A DNA stretch of 38,323 nt, from contig JAJDXD010000162.1 in the NCBI GenBank assembly GCA_022823405.1, positions 1-38,323 on the forward strand, in the 5' to 3' direction. Made by a program: the position numbers and the translations under genes. The notes below the pieces were generated by a model, which saw only the letters and a list, made by a program, of their open reading frames with translations, was not told the DNA's origin and searched no databases. Shown here piece after piece: positions 119 to 30,859 of the stretch. Source of the DNA: Gammaproteobacteria bacterium (lineage in GTDB: Bacteria > Pseudomonadota > Gammaproteobacteria > Arenicellales > JAJDZL01). The stretch's first letter is position 1, and each line of letters opens with the position of its first letter.

Positions 119-133
119 AGTTAATTACACAAA
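119..133 (+). repeat. Left terminal inverted repeat of IS1595-type element
   Basis: AGTTAATTACACAAA here is the exact reverse complement of 2944-2958. It is followed within 7 bases by the transposase promoter. Confidence 0.8.
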
Positions 134-181: not shown

Positions 182-1153
182 ATGTGCAAAGAAACATCCC
201 GCAAAGCCCCTGGCAAGTCATATCGCAAGGGCATATCACTAATCGAACTGTTTGAAATGTTCCCCGACGAAGCCACTGCGGAACGGTGGTTTGAAGATTG
301 GCGTTGGGGCGACAAGGTTGAATGCCCGCGTTGCGGGTCAGACAAAATCACACACCGCAAAAGTCGAAAGCCTCAACCTTTCTGGTGCAAGCCGTGTCGC
401 AAGTATTTCAGCGTCCGCATTGGCACCCAGTTTGAAAATTCAAGAATCCCATTGAGAAAGTGGGCGATTGGAATCTATCTGTATACTACCAGTCTCAAAG
501 GCGTATCTTCAATGAAGCTTCATAGAGATTTGGGCATTACCCAAACATCTGCGTGGTATATGCTTCACAGACTTCGCGAAGCGGCTGGCGATGATACCGA
601 TCAGTTCAACGGAACTGTTGAGGTTGACGAAACCTATGTTGGCGGACTGGAGAAGAACAAACACGCTGACAAGAAACTGAACGCCGGGCGTGGCGGAACT
701 GGCAAATCAACCGTAATCGGAATGAAAGAGCGTGAATCGAATCAGGTAACCGCAAAGGTCATCGAGAACACGAAACGCCCAACACTGCATGGTTTTATCG
801 AAGACAATGCCAGTCATGGAGCAACCGTTTACACTGATGACTTCAAGAGTTATGAGAAACTTGACGGCTACGAACATGGGACGGTTCGGCACAGTGTCGG
901 TGAGTATGTAGACGAGCAGATTCACATCAACGGCATGGAATCTTTCTGGGCAGTTCTGAAACGGGCGCATAAAGGCACTTATCACAGAATGAGCAAGAAA
1001 CATCTGCACCGCTACATCAAGGAATTTGCAGGCAGACACAATCTGCGTGAACTCGACACCATCAATCAGATGGTGAAAATCGCAACGACTGTCGTTGACA
1101 GCAGATTGAGATACGACGATCTGATCAGCGGTGTTGATGGTCGGTTTCATTGA
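182..1153 (+). CDS. IS1595-family (ISXO2-type) transposase
   Basis: This 323-aa protein catalyses transposition of the element that carries it. An N-terminal zinc ribbon is visible as CPRC (residues 48-51) and CKPC (69-72), followed by a helix-turn-helix-like region. The ISXO2-type RNase H-fold domain shows the catalytic acidic residues in VEVDETYVGG (D149), VYTDDFKSY (D219 or D220) and NGMESFWAVLKR (E253), then the family's conserved KRAHKGTYHRMS stretch. Length is normal for the family and no frameshift is present, so it looks active. The ATG at 182 is preceded by GGAA about 8 bases upstream. The stop is 11 bases before the methyltransferase start, which suggests co-transcription. Confidence 0.9.
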   Translation: MCKETSRKAPGKSYRKGISLIELFEMFPDEATAERWFEDWRWGDKVECPRCGSDKITHRKSRKPQPFWCKPCRKYFSVRIGTQFENSRIPLRKWAIGIYLYTTSLKGVSSMKLHRDLGITQTSAWYMLHRLREAAGDDTDQFNGTVEVDETYVGGLEKNKHADKKLNAGRGGTGKSTVIGMKERESNQVTAKVIENTKRPTLHGFIEDNASHGATVYTDDFKSYEKLDGYEHGTVRHSVGEYVDEQIHINGMESFWAVLKRAHKGTYHRMSKKHLHRYIKEFAGRHNLRELDTINQMVKIATTVVDSRLRYDDLISGVDGRFH

Positions 1154-1164
1154 GATAGTGCAAA

Positions 1165-2487
1165 GTGTCAGAGTGCAATGTATCGAATCGCACGATATTC
1201 TGCGATGACAATCTCGATGTTCTGCGTGGCATAAATTCAGAATGCATCGACCTGATCTATCTCGACCCGCCGTTCAACAAGAACAAGAAATTCACCGCGC
1301 CAATCGGTTCGAGTGCCGAAGGTGCGGAGTTTAGCGACATATTCAGACAGGAAGATGTCAAGGAAGAGTGGATACAGACGCTTGAACAGGATCAGCCGGA
1401 ACTGCATCAATATCTGAAAGGTATAAGAGGCGTAGGCAAGCCTTACAATTTCGCATACCTTGCATATATGGCGATTCGGTTAATCGAGTGTCATAGAGTG
1501 TTGAAACAATCCGGCAGTGTTTATCTGCATTGTGATCCGACAATGTCGCACTATCTCAAAACCACAATGGATTGCATTTTTGGCGAAGATAATTTCAGGA
1601 ACGAGATTGTCTGGTGTTATACCGGTCCCAGCAATGTCTATAAGCACTTTCCAAAGAAACATGACGTGATCATGTTTTACGCAAACCGAAATTTCAGTTT
1701 CAATCGGGACGCTGTTCGCATTCCCTATAGTGGTGAAACCATGGCACGTAGAGGGAGAGTGGAAGGCGTTAGAAGCATTATTTCATCCTCTGCTGAAACT
1801 CAGGAGCGCAGAAGCAAGGAAACTGTTGAAGATTTGTTTGGATCTGGGAAAATTCCAGAAGATTGGTGGTCGGACATTCCCATACTGACAAACCAAGCGG
1901 AACGCACAGGTTACCCCACCCAAAAACCGATTAAGTTGTTAGAACGGATTGTTAAGGCAGGCAGCAGCGAAAACGATGTAGTACTCGATCCCTTCTGTGG
2001 TTGCGCAACGACCTGCGTAGCGGCTGAACGTCTGAATAGACAATGGATTGGTGTAGATATATCAGTGAAAGCCTATGAGTTGGTCAAGCAGCGCCTTGAA
2101 CAGGAATCGATCAACATCTGGAATCCTGATGATGTAGTCAACATGCGAACTGACCCACCGAAGCGAACTGATCTGGGTGAGGATTACCGGGAGCATAAAT
2201 TCGTTTACGTCATCTCGCACCCAGCCTATCCAGGTGAGTTCAAGGTTGGCATTGCCAGGAACTGGAAGCAGAGACTGAACGCCTACCAGACATCAGACCC
2301 TGACCGGCAGTACAGGATTGAATTCAAACTCGAAACGCCATACTTCAGAGACACCGAGCTGTTCATTCATGATAAATTCGAGAACAAACATGAGTGGGTC
2401 AGAGGTGATATAAAGGAAATCATTAGAGAAATAGAGAATTTCAAACCAACACATAGCAGTCAGTCTGTTCAACAGTCGTTGCTATAA
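1165..2487 (+). CDS. Beta-class DNA methyltransferase fused to a GIY-YIG-like domain
   Basis: This 440-aa passenger protein has an N-terminal N4/N6 amino-methyltransferase module in beta order: catalytic motif IV DPPF at residues 34-37, then the SAM-binding motif I DPFCG at 275-279. It should methylate adenine N6 or cytosine N4 in a short DNA target. Residues 344 to about 430 form a separate domain with VYVI, KVGIA, an Arg in WKQRLNAYQ and a Glu in DTELF. That pattern matches GIY-YIG nucleases of the T5orf172/MUG113 type. The GTG start at 1165 gives a complete motif IV region; no strong ribosome site is seen, so it may be translationally coupled to the transposase. Whether the GIY-YIG domain cuts or only binds DNA cannot be read from sequence. 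Confidence 0.85.
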   Translation: MSECNVSNRTIFCDDNLDVLRGINSECIDLIYLDPPFNKNKKFTAPIGSSAEGAEFSDIFRQEDVKEEWIQTLEQDQPELHQYLKGIRGVGKPYNFAYLAYMAIRLIECHRVLKQSGSVYLHCDPTMSHYLKTTMDCIFGEDNFRNEIVWCYTGPSNVYKHFPKKHDVIMFYANRNFSFNRDAVRIPYSGETMARRGRVEGVRSIISSSAETQERRSKETVEDLFGSGKIPEDWWSDIPILTNQAERTGYPTQKPIKLLERIVKAGSSENDVVLDPFCGCATTCVAAERLNRQWIGVDISVKAYELVKQRLEQESINIWNPDDVVNMRTDPPKRTDLGEDYREHKFVYVISHPAYPGEFKVGIARNWKQRLNAYQTSDPDRQYRIEFKLETPYFRDTELFIHDKFENKHEWVRGDIKEIIREIENFKPTHSSQSVQQSLL

Positions 2488-2509
2488 ACAACAGAAGAGG
2501 GAGCATGAA

Positions 2510-2662
2510 ATGAAAGAACCACATAAAAACCTGCCCAAGAACAATCTCACGAAAGATCAGCACAGACGCGCTGGTGAGTTGGCTTCAAAACTGATGAGCA
2601 AGCCTCAAACCCGCCAGAAAGAAAACAGCAAAAACAATCAGAAACAAGCATATTGCCTCTGA
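2510..2662 (+). CDS. Small basic passenger peptide, unknown function
   Basis: This 50-codon ORF starts at ATG 2510 with a GAGG ribosome site at 2497-2500 (9-base spacing) and stops at TGA 2660-2662. It begins 22 bases after the methyltransferase stop and in the same direction, so it is probably the third gene of the element's operon. The product is very hydrophilic, rich in Lys, Asn and Gln, with a central HRRAGELASKLMSK stretch that could be a helix. It has no membrane segment or signal peptide. I do not recognise it. A nucleic-acid-binding role is possible from charge alone. Confidence 0.5.
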   Translation: MKEPHKNLPKNNLTKDQHRRAGELASKLMSKPQTRQKENSKNNQKQAYCL

Positions 2663-2743
2663 TTGTGCTATAAACAGACATCAAAACAGTCTGGCTTGTG
2701 CAGGATACCTGGCTTATCGTCGTGGATTCATTGCTCCTGTATT

Positions 2744-2836
2744 TGGAGGCCCGGGCGGGAATCGAACCCGCGAACGCTCTGTGAAAGCGAAGCCTGGGAT
2801 TGCGAATCCAGCACATTACCATTCTGTCACCGGGCC
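2744..2836 (-). tRNA. Class II tRNA-like gene, isotype uncertain (CGC or GCA anticodon)
   Basis: On the minus strand a 93-nt cloverleaf can be drawn. It has a perfect 7-bp acceptor stem (GGCCCGG with CCGGGCC), U73 and an encoded CCA. The D arm has a GG in its loop and a 3-bp stem, ACA/UGU. The variable arm is long (CGCUUU-CAC-AGAGCG, 6 bp). The T arm is a perfect 5-bp stem (GCGGG/CCCGC) with loop UUCGAUU. The anticodon arm, CUGGA-UUCGCAA-UCCCAG, is abnormal. It has either a bulged C in the 3' strand with anticodon CGC, or four pairs with an enlarged loop containing GCA. U73 and the D arm resemble tRNA-Cys, whereas long variable arms belong to Ser, Leu and Tyr tRNAs. It lies inside the IS1595-type element, opposite to the transposase. 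Confidence 0.7.
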
Positions 2837-2874
2837 TATCCGCCGTGTCGTATCGCCTGTCGGTAAGACATAAA

Positions 2875-2901
2875 GAAAGGGGCGACAATGTCGCCCCTTT
2901 C
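2875..2901. terminator. Bidirectional hairpin terminator
   Basis: GAAAGGGGCGAC at 2875-2886 and GTCGCCCCTTTC at 2890-2901 form a perfect 12-bp stem with a 3-base loop. Reading +, CGCTTTT follows; reading -, TTTAT follows. It would end the plus-strand passenger operon before the right end. It also lies upstream of the tRNA, so it would insulate that gene from outside transcription. Confidence 0.7.
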
Positions 2902-2943
2902 GCTTTTCAAACGACGGTGAGATTTTATCACAGCCAAAATGAG

Positions 2944-2958
2944 TTTGTGTAATTAACT
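2944..2958 (-). repeat. Right terminal inverted repeat of IS1595-type element
   Basis: TTTGTGTAATTAACT is the exact reverse complement of the left repeat at 119-133. Confidence 0.8.
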
Positions 2959-3080
2959 ATATAATTCCCTTTTTTTTGCATAACAGAAACCACTGTCATG
3001 TCCCACCACATTCATGACGTGCGTCTGACGCTGATCCTCACCGCCAGACCCGCGCAATGTCTTTAATGGGAACCTTATGG

Positions 3081-3147
3081 TTATGGGAACCCGAGCCACT
3101 GCAACCAAAGATTATCAATGAGTTGAGTCCAAGTCAGGTTCCCATAA
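3081..3147. repeat. 67-bp MITE-like unit bounded by TTATGGGAACC repeats
   Basis: TTATGGGAACC at 3081-3091 and GGTTCCCATAA at 3137-3147 are a perfect 11-bp inverted repeat 45 bases apart. A further copy (ATGGGAACC) is at 3066-3074, and the same 10-mer forms the core of the 42-bp palindrome at 3445-3486. No coding sequence is seen in 2959-3158. The pattern suggests the end sequence of some mobile element, but its identity is not known. Confidence 0.4.
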
Positions 3148-3158
3148 AAATTGCCGCC

Positions 3159-3446
3159 TCAGGCAGCGTCTATTATTGCGAGCAGTTCATCGTGAACACC
3201 TTTAAATTTGCCTTTGCGCAGGGTCACAGGTCGCCATTTATCGAGTGTATCCAGTTTGTCAGTTGGGTCCGAGAGCAGATACATTTCGGTCGTCTGCAGA
3301 CTTGAGTGCCCCAGCCACAACGAGACTTTCCTGACATCTCCGGTTGCTTCCAGAGTATGAAGTGCACATGCATGACGAAGCAGATGCGGTGATACAGTCT
3401 TTCGGGCGATTGAGGGCACGTTCTGTGCCGCGCTTTGCGCATGCAC
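3159..3446 (-). pseudogene. C-terminal fragment of a tyrosine recombinase/integrase
   Basis: About 95 residues correspond to the C-terminal catalytic part of a phage-type integrase. The stretch VSPHLLRHACALH carries the H-x-x-R box, WLGHSSLQTTEMYL carries the second conserved His and the tyrosine nucleophile, and a normal tail and TGA stop at 3159-3161 follow. The N-terminal arm-binding and core-binding domains and the first catalytic Arg are missing. Upstream in frame the 42-bp palindrome introduces a stop, so this is a remnant and not a gene starting at GTG 3446. It shows that an integrase-bearing element once lay here. Confidence 0.75.
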
Positions 3447-3486
3447 GGCAAGACGTTATGGGAACGTTCCCATAACGTCTTGCCGT
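3445..3486. repeat. Perfect 42-bp palindrome at a rearrangement junction
   Basis: Two 21-base arms, 3445-3465 and 3466-3486, are exact reverse complements with no spacer. On the minus strand the first arm encodes the DGKTLWE stretch of the truncated transposase. The second arm is its mirror and leads into the integrase remnant. A perfect spacerless palindrome is unstable, so it is probably recent or functional. It marks where the two broken genes were joined. Confidence 0.85.
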
Positions 3487-4465
3487 CAATCGCAACAGCT
3501 TCCAGAGGCGTGCCAAAGTGCCTGGCAGTGAAATCATTGACGCGGCGCTGCAGTTCATCGGGCTTGACTTCCAGCATCACATTGCGAATCACCGTGATTG
3601 ACGGCACATGACGTTTGCCTTTCGATAACCGACAGCGGAAATGACGCCGGTTCGCCTGCGAGAACTCATCACACCAGACCCAAATCTGCTTGTAGCCGCG
3701 CGCGCCGGAAAGCATCGCTGCTGCAATCAGCGCCAGTACGCAGGCAAGTGAGTGGCGCCGCCCCTGACGGCTTCGGAAATCATCAATCGACTCAAAATAC
3801 TCAAGCAGTGAATGGCATTCTGTCGGTGCAAGTCTCATTTTCTCAACCCCAGCAAGATACGCATCCGGCAACTTCGGCGCACACAGAATGCGCCGCGCAT
3901 CGCGGTGCAATGATTTGACAAATACGAACTTGACTGACTCGGTGGGATGGGCGCTGTAGCCGCCGTAAACACGCCTGTAGCCGCGGGTATCGCCTGCGTA
4001 GACCCAATTGTCCGCACGGTATATCGTGCCCAAATGAAAATCTGAATCCACAAAAGTCTCCAGCAGCAGCGGCTTTGAGAAATGCTCAAGCCAATCATCA
4101 GCCAATCGGTGACGGCAGGCTGACAGAATGCGAGTAGCCAAGTTCGGGTAATGGTGTCCGGGCAGGATGAGAAAGCGGGAATTGTTCGCAATCAATCTGA
4201 GTCGGTCTGTGCGATACGGCTGTGGCCAGCCGATCCACTGGTCTCGGGCAGCGCATTTCAGCGCAGCCGGAGAAAAACTGATCAGTGCAATCCATTCCCC
4301 CTCATCGATGACGACATAATGCAGTTCGTGACCAATGCGCCGAAGCGCACCGCGTCGATGATGTTTCGCCATGAAATCATCGAACTGCGACTGTTCATCA
4401 GTGCTGATTAATCGAAGATTCAGCTCCGATGGGTACAATTTGCATGTCTTGACACGCCCGAACAT
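3466..4465 (-). pseudogene. Truncated ISAs1-type transposase (DUF4338 + DDE)
   Basis: From ATG 4465 the frame encodes a DUF4338 domain (about residues 10-205, including the HYPNLATRILSACRHRL stretch). The ISAs1/H-repeat transposase N-terminal region follows (LLEYFESIDDFRSRQGRRHSL, then a hydrophobic helix). It then reaches VAIDGKTL, which holds the first Asp of the catalytic DDE triad. At that point homology stops at the 42-bp palindrome; the remaining frame down to 3224 is out-of-frame read-through of the integrase fragment. The second and third catalytic residues are absent, so it cannot transpose. DUF4338 fused to ISAs1-type transposases is a known architecture. The same domain also occurs as DruA of the Druantia defence system, but no Druantia partners are nearby. 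Confidence 0.8.
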
Positions 4466-5767: not shown

Positions 5768-6988
5768 TTACGCTGCAGATTCACCAACAGGCTGTCGAAC
5801 CAGGTCCAGTTCATGAAACACGCTAACCAGCGCATCAACAAGATAGTCGATCATTTCGTCAGTGTGCAGCGGAGTTGGGGTAATCCTCAATCGTTCAGTA
5901 CCGACAGGGACAGTGGGGTGATTGATATGCTGGACAAAGATATCGTATTTGTCAAGCAGCAGGTGGCTGGCTTCTCGACAGCGTTTTGCATCGTAGACCA
6001 TGACGGGCACAATATGACTGGGGTTAGGCAAAATTGGTAATCCGGCTTCAGCAAGCCTGGACTTGACAACATTAACATTTCGATGCAATCGAATGCGGGC
6101 CTGAACATCCTGCTTTACGTGTCTAACACTCGCGACTGCTCCAGCTGCTGTGGCCGGTGGCATTGCTGTGGTAAAGATAAAACCACTGCCGAAGCAACGA
6201 ATGTAGTCGATCAATAATGCACTGGCAGCGATGTAGCCACCAATAACACCAAATGCCTTCCCCAATGTCCCCTGGATAACATCAACCCGGTCTGACAACC
6301 CATCGCGCTGTGCGACGCCGCCTCCGGATTCGCCATACAGGCCGACGGCATGAACTTCATCCAGGTAAGTGAGTGCGTTATATTTGTCGGCCAAGTCGCA
6401 AAACTCCTTTATGAACCCAATATCACCGTCCATTGAATAGACAGACTCGAAAGCAATCAGCTTGGGACGGTTGATGTCAACACTCGCGAGCAGTTCTTCC
6501 AGATGTTCTGCATCATTGTGCCGAAATATATGTCGTTCACTTTTACCAAACCGAACACCTTCAATCATGGAGGCGTGATTCAAAGCATCAGAAAAGAGCA
6601 CCATGTCTGGCAACCCGCCTAAGGTACTGAGCACGGTTGAATTAGCAACATAGCCTGATGTGAACACCAGCGCACTTTCTTTCTCGTGCAGTTCGGCCAG
6701 CTCTTCTTCCAGCCTCACCAGCGGATGACTGGTACCGGCAATATTGCGGGTTCCACCAGCACCAGCACCAATTTCCCTGACCGTTTCGCAAATCGCATCC
6801 GCGATCACTGGGTGCTGACCCATACCGAGGTAATCGTTGCTGCACCACAAGGTGATTTCCCGACCAACAGAATGGTTCATGGCGCGCGGATAGTTCCCCG
6901 CTCGCCGCTGAAGATCTGTAAACTCGCGGTAATTTCCCGCGTCCTTGAGACGACCTATCGATAGGGAAAAAAGGTGATCGTAGTTCAT
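5768..6988 (-). CDS. hemA: 5-aminolevulinate synthase
   Basis: This 406-aa PLP enzyme condenses glycine and succinyl-CoA to 5-aminolevulinate, the first step of tetrapyrrole synthesis by the C4 (Shemin) route. Seen directly: the ALAS-type [13 protein letters not shown] segment (48-60), [13 protein letters not shown] (74-86), SLNHASM-like [21 protein letters not shown] (210-219), and the PLP lysine K244 in GTLGKAFG. The match to alphaproteobacterial ALAS is close, and clearly closer than to KBL or BioF of the same fold. Most gammaproteobacteria instead use GtrA/HemL from glutamyl-tRNA, so the gene may have been acquired or be a lineage trait. The name hemA here means ALAS, not glutamyl-tRNA reductase. 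Confidence 0.9.
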
Positions 6989-28423: not shown

Positions 28424-28451
28424 TTGAACTGAAATATCGAGTCAGTATAAT
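28424..28451 (+). promoter_or_regulatory. Promoter of the btu operon
   Basis: TTGAAC at 28424-28429 and a consensus TATAAT at 28446-28451 are 16 bases apart. The expected start near 28458 falls just before the riboswitch aptamer. Two GAGTCAG copies flank the -10 (28439-28445 and 28454-28460). Confidence 0.75.
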
Positions 28452-28463
28452 TCGAGTCAGCAT

Positions 28464-28625
28464 TGGTTCCCTTGAATGGGAAGCGATATGGAACAAGGTC
28501 AGGCAATTTGCTGAATCCTTGGCTGCCCCCGCAACTGTATGCGGAGAGCAAATGCTCAATTGAGCCACTGGGTAACTGGGAAGGCAGAGCACAAGCATCG
28601 ACCCGCAAGCCAGGAAACCTGCCAT
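28464..28625 (+). ncRNA. Cobalamin (B12) riboswitch
   Basis: The conserved blocks appear in order: GGTTCCC and TGGGAAG near 28465-28483, CCCCCGCAACTGTATGCGG (28526-28544), CCACTGGG...CTGGGAAGGC (28565-28585) and the B12 box AGCCAGGAAACCTGCC ending at 28623. The loop sequence TGGGTAAC (28569-28576) is complementary over 8 bases to GTTACCCA (28633-28640) just after the aptamer. That matches the L5-L13 kissing loop that couples ligand binding to gene control. It sits 234 bases before btuB, so B12 should reduce expression of the uptake operon. Confidence 0.93.
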
Positions 28626-28641
28626 TGCTAGCGTTACCCAA

Positions 28642-28687: not shown

Positions 28688-28858
28688 CGCGCCAATTTGT
28701 GTTAACTGCAAAAGGGCACCGAAATATGGGACTCCCTTCCAATTTCATCGCAGCAAAATCCTTGGGTCAACTTACTGAACTCAAGGAAAATGCTCGCGCT
28801 GAGTCTAGGCTTTTGCCCTTCTGCGATCAATCTTCAACTTTCACAGAGAGGCGATCCA

Positions 28859-30859
28859 ATGTCCTGCCAATACCACTTGTTCTCATCGAGACTCGCCAGA
28901 GCACTTTTCGGCTTGATTGTAGGCCTGTGCCTGGCGTTAACTTCCCTTTCAATCCCAGCTCAAGACGAAATGTCTGAGGCGGAGGAAGATAATGAACAAT
29001 CCGAGTCTACCGCTACCGTAACGACGACACCAGAAGTGGTCGTTTCCGCCAGTCGGATTTCCATCCCGACCAAACAGATTGGCAGCAGCGTCACTGTTTT
29101 CAATGAAGAAGAAATTGAACAGCGGCAACCGGAATTTCTGCATGAAATTCTACGAGAAGTTCCGAGTGTTGCTGTCAGCCAATCTGGTGCTGGCGGAGGC
29201 AATGCCAGCATTCGAATTCGCGGTGCAGAGGCGAATCACACACTTGTGCTGATAGACGGTCTGGACATGGGAAATCCATTTAGTGGTGATGAATTCCAAC
29301 TGCAGCACATGCCAGTATCCTCCCTTCAATCGATTGAGGTTCTGCGTGGCCCACAAAGTTCAATTCATGGCAGCGAGACAATTGGCGGTGTAATCAGCAT
29401 TACAACGCCCATACCCGAAGAGGGTGTTGAAGCTTCTGTAAGTGCAGAACTGGGAACTCTAAGTACTAAAAAAACCAAGAGTTATGTCGGGTTTGCTAAT
29501 GATAATTTTTATGCAGCAATTACCGCTAGTCATTCTGAATCGGAAGGTGCAACTTCCAGAACTCACAATTCAGAAAGAGACGGATACAAGAATCAATACA
29601 TGCACCTCAAGTCGGGGCTCGAGATCGCGGAAAATCTCAATCTTTCTGCTGTCTTCATTGGCATTAATTCAGAAGGCGAATATGACGATTACAGTGGTGA
29701 GGCATCTCCTTTTTTTAGTGGGACAAACAACTACTTGGGAAAAGACAGGAAAAGAGTCCTCGGCACCACGGTGAAATACAACGAAGACGATGACCCGATC
29801 ACACACAAAATTTCACTGTCAGCGTCAAAACACGAAAGAAGAGACTTTAAAGACGGCAGTCAGACAACGCTTAGCCGCGGTAAAAGCAGAAAGTTCTCTT
29901 ACCAAGGAACACTAAACTACCAGGCATTTGATATTGAGCACTCAACTACATTCGCTGCTGAACGAAAAATTTCTGAAGTCAGTTCAGGTGCTTTGAGCCA
30001 CCCTGTTGGTGGCAAGCTGAAGCTTCGCAGTGCAGTGCTTGAACATCGTCTTAATTTTGACGATACAGGATTCTTTTCAGTAAGCGGACGAGTTGATGAC
30101 AGCGAAGATGCCGTATTTGACAGTCGGGATACCTATCGAGTAACCGGTGCTTGGATTCTAAATGAACAAACTCGTTTCCATGGAAGTTTCGGTACTGGCA
30201 CAAAAAATCCAACAATTCAGGATATTTACGGATGGACAACGGAGTGGCAACCCAATCCTGATATCAAACCGGAAACAAGTAAGGGTTTTGATATCGGTAT
30301 TGAAAATCAAATCGGCGATGGCAGATTCACGCTCGACGCTACTTATTTCTATAACAAGATTACGAATCTCATTACCATCTTCAACTGCGTTTCGGGCTGT
30401 CAAATTGGCGATTCTGACCCCAGCGTGTACCAGGCCAGAAATTCGACTGGTGTTTCGCATATCAAAGGGTTGGAATTATCTGCTCGGGGGGAGTTTGGAG
30501 ATGGTTACGATATTGCGTTTCAGCTTACACATAGCGATGGTGTTGACGCAGATAAGAACAAACTGGTCAGACGTCCGACTCGAACCGCCAGTCTTAATAT
30601 CAATAAGAACATCCAGATTCTTGGCTACCCGGGTAACATAAACCTCAATGTTCAGCATACAGGCTCGCAGTTGGATACAGGGGCAGTCAAATTAGACGGA
30701 TTTACGCTCGCTCACCTCGGTGCGAATCTGCAAATCTCCCCCAATAGTCAATTGACCGCAAGAATTGATAACCTATTCAATAAAACCGACTACGAGGAAG
30801 TAGGCGGTTACGGTGTTGCAGAGAGGTCATTTCACATAGGAGTCAAGTACGATTTTTGA
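28859..30859 (+). CDS. btuB: TonB-dependent vitamin B12 receptor
   Basis: This 666-aa outer-membrane receptor has a signal peptide (hydrophobic LFGLIVGLCLALTSLSIPA) and an acidic spacer. A TonB box-like PEVVVSASR and a plug domain (SIRIRGAEANHTLVLIDGLDMGNPF, then VLRGPQSSIHGSETIGGVISI) follow. A beta-barrel ends in the aromatic residue of HIGVKYDF, the usual outer-membrane signature. The plug matches E. coli BtuB closely in layout. ATG 28859 has a strong AGAGAGG site 8 bases upstream; the frame extends to ATG 28790 but that would bury the signal peptide. Control by the preceding cobalamin riboswitch supports B12 as ligand. Confidence 0.93.
   Translation: MSCQYHLFSSRLARALFGLIVGLCLALTSLSIPAQDEMSEAEEDNEQSESTATVTTTPEVVVSASRISIPTKQIGSSVTVFNEEEIEQRQPEFLHEILREVPSVAVSQSGAGGGNASIRIRGAEANHTLVLIDGLDMGNPFSGDEFQLQHMPVSSLQSIEVLRGPQSSIHGSETIGGVISITTPIPEEGVEASVSAELGTLSTKKTKSYVGFANDNFYAAITASHSESEGATSRTHNSERDGYKNQYMHLKSGLEIAENLNLSAVFIGINSEGEYDDYSGEASPFFSGTNNYLGKDRKRVLGTTVKYNEDDDPITHKISLSASKHERRDFKDGSQTTLSRGKSRKFSYQGTLNYQAFDIEHSTTFAAERKISEVSSGALSHPVGGKLKLRSAVLEHRLNFDDTGFFSVSGRVDDSEDAVFDSRDTYRVTGAWILNEQTRFHGSFGTGTKNPTIQDIYGWTTEWQPNPDIKPETSKGFDIGIENQIGDGRFTLDATYFYNKITNLITIFNCVSGCQIGDSDPSVYQARNSTGVSHIKGLELSARGEFGDGYDIAFQLTHSDGVDADKNKLVRRPTRTASLNINKNIQILGYPGNINLNVQHTGSQLDTGAVKLDGFTLAHLGANLQISPNSQLTARIDNLFNKTDYEEVGGYGVAERSFHIGVKYDF

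What the first reader, a model, noticed from the sequence alone, without database searches (positions are those of the whole stretch)
2744..2836. tRNA with long variable arm, U73 and an irregular anticodon arm
The acceptor, T and variable arms are perfect and CCA is encoded, so this is not random decay. The anticodon arm has one base too many: CGC with a bulged stem, or a U-U-C-G-C-A-A-U 8-base loop. Compared with tRNA-Cys (U73, similar D arm, GCA) it looks like an inserted C plus a long variable arm. It could be a mis-charging tRNA, a frameshift-suppressor type or a recoding tRNA.
Basis: partly seen in the sequence, partly recalled or inferred. Interest (0 to 1): 0.75.

Follow-up and report, generated by a model that had tools for sequence, protein, structure and literature searches.

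The report
Odd tRNA carried by a transposon
A bacterial jumping gene carries its own strange transfer RNA, whose anticodon asks for alanine but whose body is built so that the alanine enzyme should not charge it; relatives sit in the same place in other jumping genes, so it seems to be kept by selection and may misread the genetic code or regulate the element.

Summary
The tRNA at 2744-2836 (-) is real, but it is not a frameshift-type tRNA-Cys. It lies inside an IS1595-family transposon (transposase, DNA methylase fused to a T5orf172 domain, a conserved 50-aa ORF, tRNA on the opposite strand, hairpin, right terminal repeat). Six homologues were found: five in the same bacterial order and one in an IS1-type transposon of another gammaproteobacterium. 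One relative (L112) is a complete 3,411-bp transposon with a perfect 8-bp target duplication and the tRNA inside, so the tRNA is cargo. Across the seven tRNAs the acceptor stem is fully paired with compensatory changes at 5 of 7 pairs. U33, G35, C36, A37, A38 and U73 are invariant; base 34 is C, A or U. The anticodon is NGC (alanine box) in a normal 7-base loop, yet none has the alanine mark G3:U70. The body resembles tRNA-Ser except for U73. The 'extra base' is not a family trait: pair 27:43 is always mismatched and this copy also lost 28:42. Best reading: a transposon-borne missense tRNA, probably seryl, at alanine codons. Cargo status is shown; charging and decoding are inferred. Allo-tRNAs are closest but fail the 8/4 or 9/3 test.

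The parts
2744..2836 (-). class-II-like tRNA gene, anticodon CGC (bases 34-36), U73, CCA encoded
182..1153 (+). IS1595-family (ISXO2-like) DDE transposase, 323 aa, intact
   Evidence: Pfam PF12762 1.8e-40 and PF12760 2.9e-08; NCBIfam NF033547 4e-56
1165..2487 (+). N6/N4 DNA methylase fused to a C-terminal T5orf172 domain (restriction-modification-like cargo)
   Evidence: Pfam PF01555 3.1e-45, PF10544 6.3e-09
2510..2662 (+). 50-aa ORF conserved next to the tRNA (P-H-x-x-L-P-x-N-x-L-T-x-x-Q-H ... L-M-S-K-P), no Pfam or NCBIfam match
   Evidence: alignment A3; genome searches
2875..2901 (.). near-perfect hairpin GAAAGGGGCGACAATGTCGCCCCTTTC, conserved terminator-like element between tRNA and right end; an ordinary phage terminator has the same form
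2837..2920 (-). region upstream of the tRNA, strongly folding (z = -6.2) and structurally conserved in relatives
2922..2951 (-). promoter-like TACACA-18-TAAAAT with TG before the second hexamer, reading inward from the right end; the TAAAAT-type hexamer recurs in relatives
   Evidence: consensus match only
2634..2666 (-). terminator-like stem of 14 pairs plus T-run, downstream of the tRNA on its strand
   Evidence: consensus match only
119..133 (.). left terminal inverted repeat, inner 15 bp (AGTTAATTACACAAA); the outermost ~11 bp are replaced in this copy
2944..2969 (.). right terminal inverted repeat; reverse complement GGGAATTATATAGTTAATTACACAAA, element end at 2969

Best explanation
A passenger tRNA gene of an IS1595-family transposon, carried with a DNA methylase and a small conserved ORF. 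SHOWN: it lies between the transposon's terminal repeats, is conserved as a folded tRNA under selection in seven loci, and combines an alanine-box anticodon (NGC) with a body lacking the alanine identity pair. INFERRED: it is transcribed from the right end of the transposon, matured by the host, charged by a synthetase that ignores the anticodon (most likely SerRS, from the long variable arm and tRNA-Ser-like D and T arms), and inserts that amino acid at GCN codons, as a missense tRNA. Its benefit to the element is unknown; adjustment of host translation, or coupling to the methylase cargo, are guesses.
For: Transposon cargo: 15-bp inverted repeats flank the gene set. A sibling element L112:809-4219 (3,411 bp) has matching ends and an identical 8-bp target duplication TCTTTTAA, with the tRNA at 3994-4090 inside. 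Same gene order (transposase, methylase, small ORF, tRNA on the opposite strand, hairpin, right end) in window and L112; L045, L113 and L111 keep parts of it. The same tRNA family lies in an IS1-type element with its own terminal repeats (L078, 760-2430). Selection as tRNA: acceptor stem 100% paired in seven sequences, 5 of 7 pairs with double changes, covariation 0.474 against 0.179 shuffled (0 of 500) and at most 0.118 when slid. U33, G35, C36, A37, A38, U73 invariant, base 34 variable. 3:70 is C-G, U-A or A-U, never G:U, whereas a host tRNA-Ala has G3:U70 (L022). tRNA-Ser-like: background hits of the family model in other genomes of the class are almost all ordinary tRNA-Ser; the T-arm GCGGGUUCGAnUCCCGC occurs in tRNA-Ser genes of the same order (L103, L110).
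Against: U73 instead of the serine G73. The variable arm is joined by more unpaired bases than in ordinary tRNA-Ser. No expression or charging data. The transposases show no sign of depending on serine at alanine codons (3 A/S differences). A terminator-like hairpin lies between the putative promoter and the tRNA. Some copies are decaying (L113 ends CCT, L111 ends CTA, L114 has lost the transposon).
Confidence: 0.45

Rival explanations
1. A tRNA-shaped regulatory RNA of the transposon that does not decode. The tRNA fold recruits host RNase P, CCA or decay machinery, or shields or terminates transcripts at the right end; it lies antisense to the 3' end of the small-ORF transcript.
For: The gene lies between the small ORF and a hairpin on the strand opposite to the ORF in all intact copies, and in L078 too. 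The region upstream of the tRNA is strongly structured and conserved. A + strand motif TTGTGnTATAA recurs just before the tRNA in window, L045, L111 and L114.
Against: Anticodon-loop bases U33, G35, C36, A37, A38 and the U73/CCA end are conserved as in a decoding tRNA; a mere fold would not need them.
Confidence: 0.3
2. A tRNA-Cys derivative with an 8-nt anticodon loop, GCA shifted by one base, acting as a +1 frameshift suppressor or four-base decoder.
For: U73 and conserved GCAA; the slipped register pairs slightly more cells (29 against 25 of 35).
Against: Long variable arm; L111 and L112 close a perfect 4-bp stem on a 7-nt loop; T-arm and variable arm fit tRNA-Ser better; arm length matches ordinary tRNA-Ser(GCU) (L110).
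Confidence: 0.08
3. Decaying pseudo-tRNA dragged along by an old transposon.
For: Mismatches at 27:43 and 28:42 in this copy; several relatives degenerate; left end of this transposon damaged.
Against: Perfect acceptor and T stems with compensatory evolution in divergent copies; transposase and methylase ORFs intact.
Confidence: 0.12

Closest known systems
allo-tRNAs (Mukai et al. 2017, as reviewed in PMC7609411)
   Same: Long variable arm, anticodon that does not match the body's identity, thought to be read by SerRS; [quoted passage not shown]
   Different: Allo-tRNAs are defined by a 12-bp acceptor branch as 8/4 or 9/3; this family is a plain 7/5 with U73, and sits at a fixed place inside complete transposons with small-ORF and methylase partners
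selC* tRNA-Cys (PMC7609411)
   Same: U73 and long variable arm
   Different: selC* tRNA-Cys has an 8/4 branch with a bulge and GCA or UCA anticodon; here 7/5 and NGC
bacterial tRNA-Ser
   Same: Long variable arm, T-arm, D-arm, C11-G24 in six of seven
   Different: G73 and serine anticodon absent
IS1595-family transposons with passenger genes
   Same: Transposase, inverted repeats starting GGGA, 8-bp target duplication in siblings, methylase or nuclease cargo
   Different: I found no report of a tRNA gene as such cargo in the searchable literature

Membership tests
tRNA (Rfam RF00005) | score above gathering threshold with cloverleaf | tested here: met
   48.5 bits vs 29; relatives 30.5-54.3 bits
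tRNA-Ala | G3:U70 pair (and A73) | tested here: not met
   C3-G70, U73 here; no G3:U70 in any of seven
tRNA-Ala | anticodon NGC | tested here: met
   CGC here; AGC and UGC in relatives
tRNA-Cys | GCA at positions 34-36 | tested here: not met
   CGC in the canonical register; GCA only if the loop has 8 nt
tRNA-Cys | U73 | tested here: met
   invariant in seven
tRNA-Cys | short (class I) variable loop | tested here: not met
   long arm with covarying stem
tRNA-Ser | long variable arm | tested here: met
tRNA-Ser | G73 discriminator and serine anticodon | tested here: not met
   U73, NGC
tRNA-Ser | charging by SerRS | not testable with these tools
   needs aminoacylation assay
allo-tRNA | 12-bp acceptor branch as 8/4 or 9/3 | tested here: not met
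   7-bp acceptor and 5-bp T stem, all pairs formed in seven
allo-tRNA | anticodon not matching the identity elements | tested here: inconclusive
   anticodon NGC without G3:U70; true identity unknown
frameshift-suppressor tRNA | 8-nt anticodon loop | tested here: inconclusive
   two registers possible; homologues and arm length favour 7 nt
IS1595-family transposon | DDE_Tnp_IS1595 transposase with zinc ribbon | tested here: met
IS1595-family transposon | terminal inverted repeats and 8-bp target duplication | tested here: inconclusive
   met in siblings L112, L160, L161; in the window the inner 15 bp of both repeats are perfect but the outer left end is replaced and no duplication is seen

The most novel reading that the evidence does not exclude
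A family of transposon-borne missense tRNAs: mobile elements that carry, with DNA-methylase cargo and a dedicated small protein, a tRNA that makes the host insert a non-alanine amino acid at alanine codons, as a regulatory or stabilising device, and that has moved between two unrelated transposon families.
Probability: 0.33. Interest if true: 0.85.

Novelty: new variant of a known kind. Interest (0 to 1): 0.62.

Why it matters
Insertion sequences are known to carry protein genes as cargo; a conserved, structurally selected tRNA as cargo, with an anticodon at odds with its body and found in two transposon families, is to my knowledge undescribed. If it is charged and used, it is a natural, mobile source of mistranslation at alanine codons. 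If not, it is a case of a mobile element using the tRNA fold as a regulatory RNA. Either outcome can be tested in a laboratory E. coli strain.

Tried and rejected
tRNA-Cys origin with inserted C: rejected as family trait. Phage or plasmid origin: no full-length match in phages or plasmids; a phage tRNA-Ser(GCU) in L081 shares the D-arm but is an ordinary tRNA-Ser in a tRNA cluster. Vreelandella hits of the D-arm pattern: chance match in what looks like coding DNA, no tRNA there. Recoding dependence of the transposase on serine at alanine codons: no signal. L114 lying about 1 kb from a cysS-like gene looked suggestive, but it is a lone copy without the transposon and I treat it as chance. Upstream hairpin as a specific RNA element: the same hairpin form follows a phage gene (L170), so it is probably a terminator. 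Wider search: none above the tRNA-Ser background in samples of the class (369 genomes), phylum (398) and the order of the L078 genome (245), but only part of the first-look candidates was scored in these large runs, so absence is weak evidence. Small ORF: no plasmid match; in the class sample only the window's own.

Full report
Observation. ARAGORN and Rfam both find a tRNA at exactly the reported place and strand. The acceptor stem (GGCCCGG/CCGGGCC), the T stem, a long variable arm, U73 and CCA are as described. ARAGORN names it tRNA-Ala(CGC). The whole draft genome (3.15 Mb, 166 contigs) has one copy and 41 tRNA matches, among them ordinary tRNA-Cys(GCA), tRNA-Ala(CGC) and tRNA-Ser(GCT), so this is an extra gene.

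It is transposon cargo. Left of the tRNA lie an IS1595-family transposase (182-1153), an N6/N4 DNA methylase fused to a T5orf172 domain (1165-2487) and a 50-aa ORF (2510-2662). A perfect 15-bp inverted repeat brackets the set: 119-133 and 2944-2958. Related elements in the same genus and order begin with GGGAATTATA or close variants, and three have exact 8-bp target duplications (L112 TCTTTTAA, L160 GAAATTAA, L161 GAATTTTA). The window's right end matches this form at 2969; its outermost left ~11 bp are replaced and no duplication is seen. In L112 the element is complete (809-4219): transposase, methylase, an unassigned ORF, the small ORF, and the tRNA on the opposite strand just inside the right end. 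This is the strongest evidence that the tRNA travels with the transposon.

Homologues. The tRNA was found in G002 (L032/L045, 85% identical, in the same kind of transposon), a second and a third copy in G002 (L111, L114), in G022 (L112) and G003 (L113), and in a gammaproteobacterial MAG contig JAPOYI010000064.1 (L078), there inside a different, IS1-type element with its own inverted repeats (760-2430), a single-frame IS1-like transposase and an HNH-like frame. That frame resembles, by eye, the tail of a methylase-HNH protein carried by a sibling IS1595 element, L160, which suggests that cargo moves between transposon families. Many IS1595 relatives in the genus have no tRNA; some carry only methylase or nuclease-like cargo, and one pair in G005 has a similar small ORF but no tRNA.

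The tRNA is under selection. In the seven-sequence alignment the acceptor stem is paired in every cell, with changes on both sides at 5 of 7 pairs. For the whole structure 92.5% of cells pair, and the covariation score is 0.474 against 0.179 +/- 0.031 for shuffles and at most 0.118 for slid controls. U8, A14, U33, G35, C36, A37, A38, most of the T-loop and U73 are kept. Base 34 is C, A or U.

Anticodon arm. In the canonical register the loop is U-U-N-G-C-A-A (C-U-A-G-C-A-A in L032), the anticodon is NGC, 27:43 is never paired, and this copy also has U28*C42. Pair counts (25 against 29 of 35) do not decide. Arm length equal to that of ordinary tRNA-Ser(GCU) of the same order (L110) and the clean stems of L111 and L112 favour 7 nt. 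My verdict is that the extra base is apparent, not real, with moderate confidence.

Identity. AlaRS recognition by G3:U70 is excluded on sequence in all seven, while a host tRNA-Ala carries G3:U70. CysRS would want GCA at 34-36. SerRS and LeuRS are the remaining synthetases that, by established knowledge, do not read the anticodon; LeuRS wants A73. Long variable arm, T-arm and D-arm fit tRNA-Ser, with U73 as the exception. So serine is the likeliest charge, cysteine second; this is inference.

Surroundings. On the tRNA strand there is a promoter-like site in the right end (2951-2922), then a hairpin (2901-2875), the tRNA, and a terminator-like stem at 2666-2634. The hairpin and the region between it and the tRNA are conserved and fold strongly (z = -6.2 in the window, -3.6 to -7.8 in relatives), but the hairpin has the same form as an ordinary phage terminator (L170), so I read it as a terminator of the + strand operon that also lies in the tRNA's leader. 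How the tRNA is expressed past it is unexplained. A + strand motif TTGTGnTATAA lies between ORF and tRNA in window, L045, L111 and L114; its meaning is unknown.

Function. Invariant anticodon-loop bases argue for decoding of the alanine box; the body argues against alanine. Hence a missense tRNA is the best-supported mechanism, at about 45%. A non-decoding regulatory RNA is the main rival. I found no sign that the transposase needs the substitution.

Novelty. Allo-tRNAs (reviewed in PMC7609411) are the closest kind: long variable arm, mismatched anticodon, and for one group a suspected link with transposable elements. The defining 8/4 or 9/3 branch is absent here (7/5), so it is not a member. 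Literature searches in the open-access library found no tRNA gene described as passenger of an insertion sequence; subscription papers could not be searched, and the original allo-tRNA paper was not held.

Limits. Seven sequences only; large genome searches scored only part of the candidates; metagenomes could not be scanned; no expression data.

Noticed in passing
3445-3486: Perfect 42-bp palindrome (21-bp arms, no spacer) inside the reading frames of broken mobile-element genes (integrase fragment 3159-3446, DruA-like/DDE_Tnp_1-associated ORF 3224-4465); possibly a junction or an assembly artefact.
   Followed up: no
28447-28640: Cobalamin riboswitch (Rfam RF00174, 101.5 bits) directly upstream of a TonB-dependent-receptor-like ORF at 28790-30859 and ABC-transporter-like genes, probably a B12 uptake locus.
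   Followed up: no
5768-6988 (-): ORF that reads like 5-aminolevulinate synthase (judged by eye), an enzyme more typical of Alphaproteobacteria, in what appears to be a gammaproteobacterial genome.
   Followed up: no
2663-2673 (+): Motif TTGTGnTATAA (extended -10-like) recurs between the small ORF and the tRNA in window, L045, L111 and L114, reading antisense into the tRNA.
   Followed up: partly
L157, L160, L161: Sibling IS1595 transposons in the same genus carry different DNA methylase and nuclease-like cargo between their inverted repeats: a family of restriction-modification-carrying transposons.
   Followed up: partly
L114:412-509: Lone copy of the tRNA with intact acceptor stem and CCA but no transposon, about 1 kb from a cysS-like gene; relic or domesticated copy.
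   Followed up: partly
108-133: Outer left end of the window's transposon is replaced although the inner repeat is perfect; this copy may be unable to move.
   Followed up: partly
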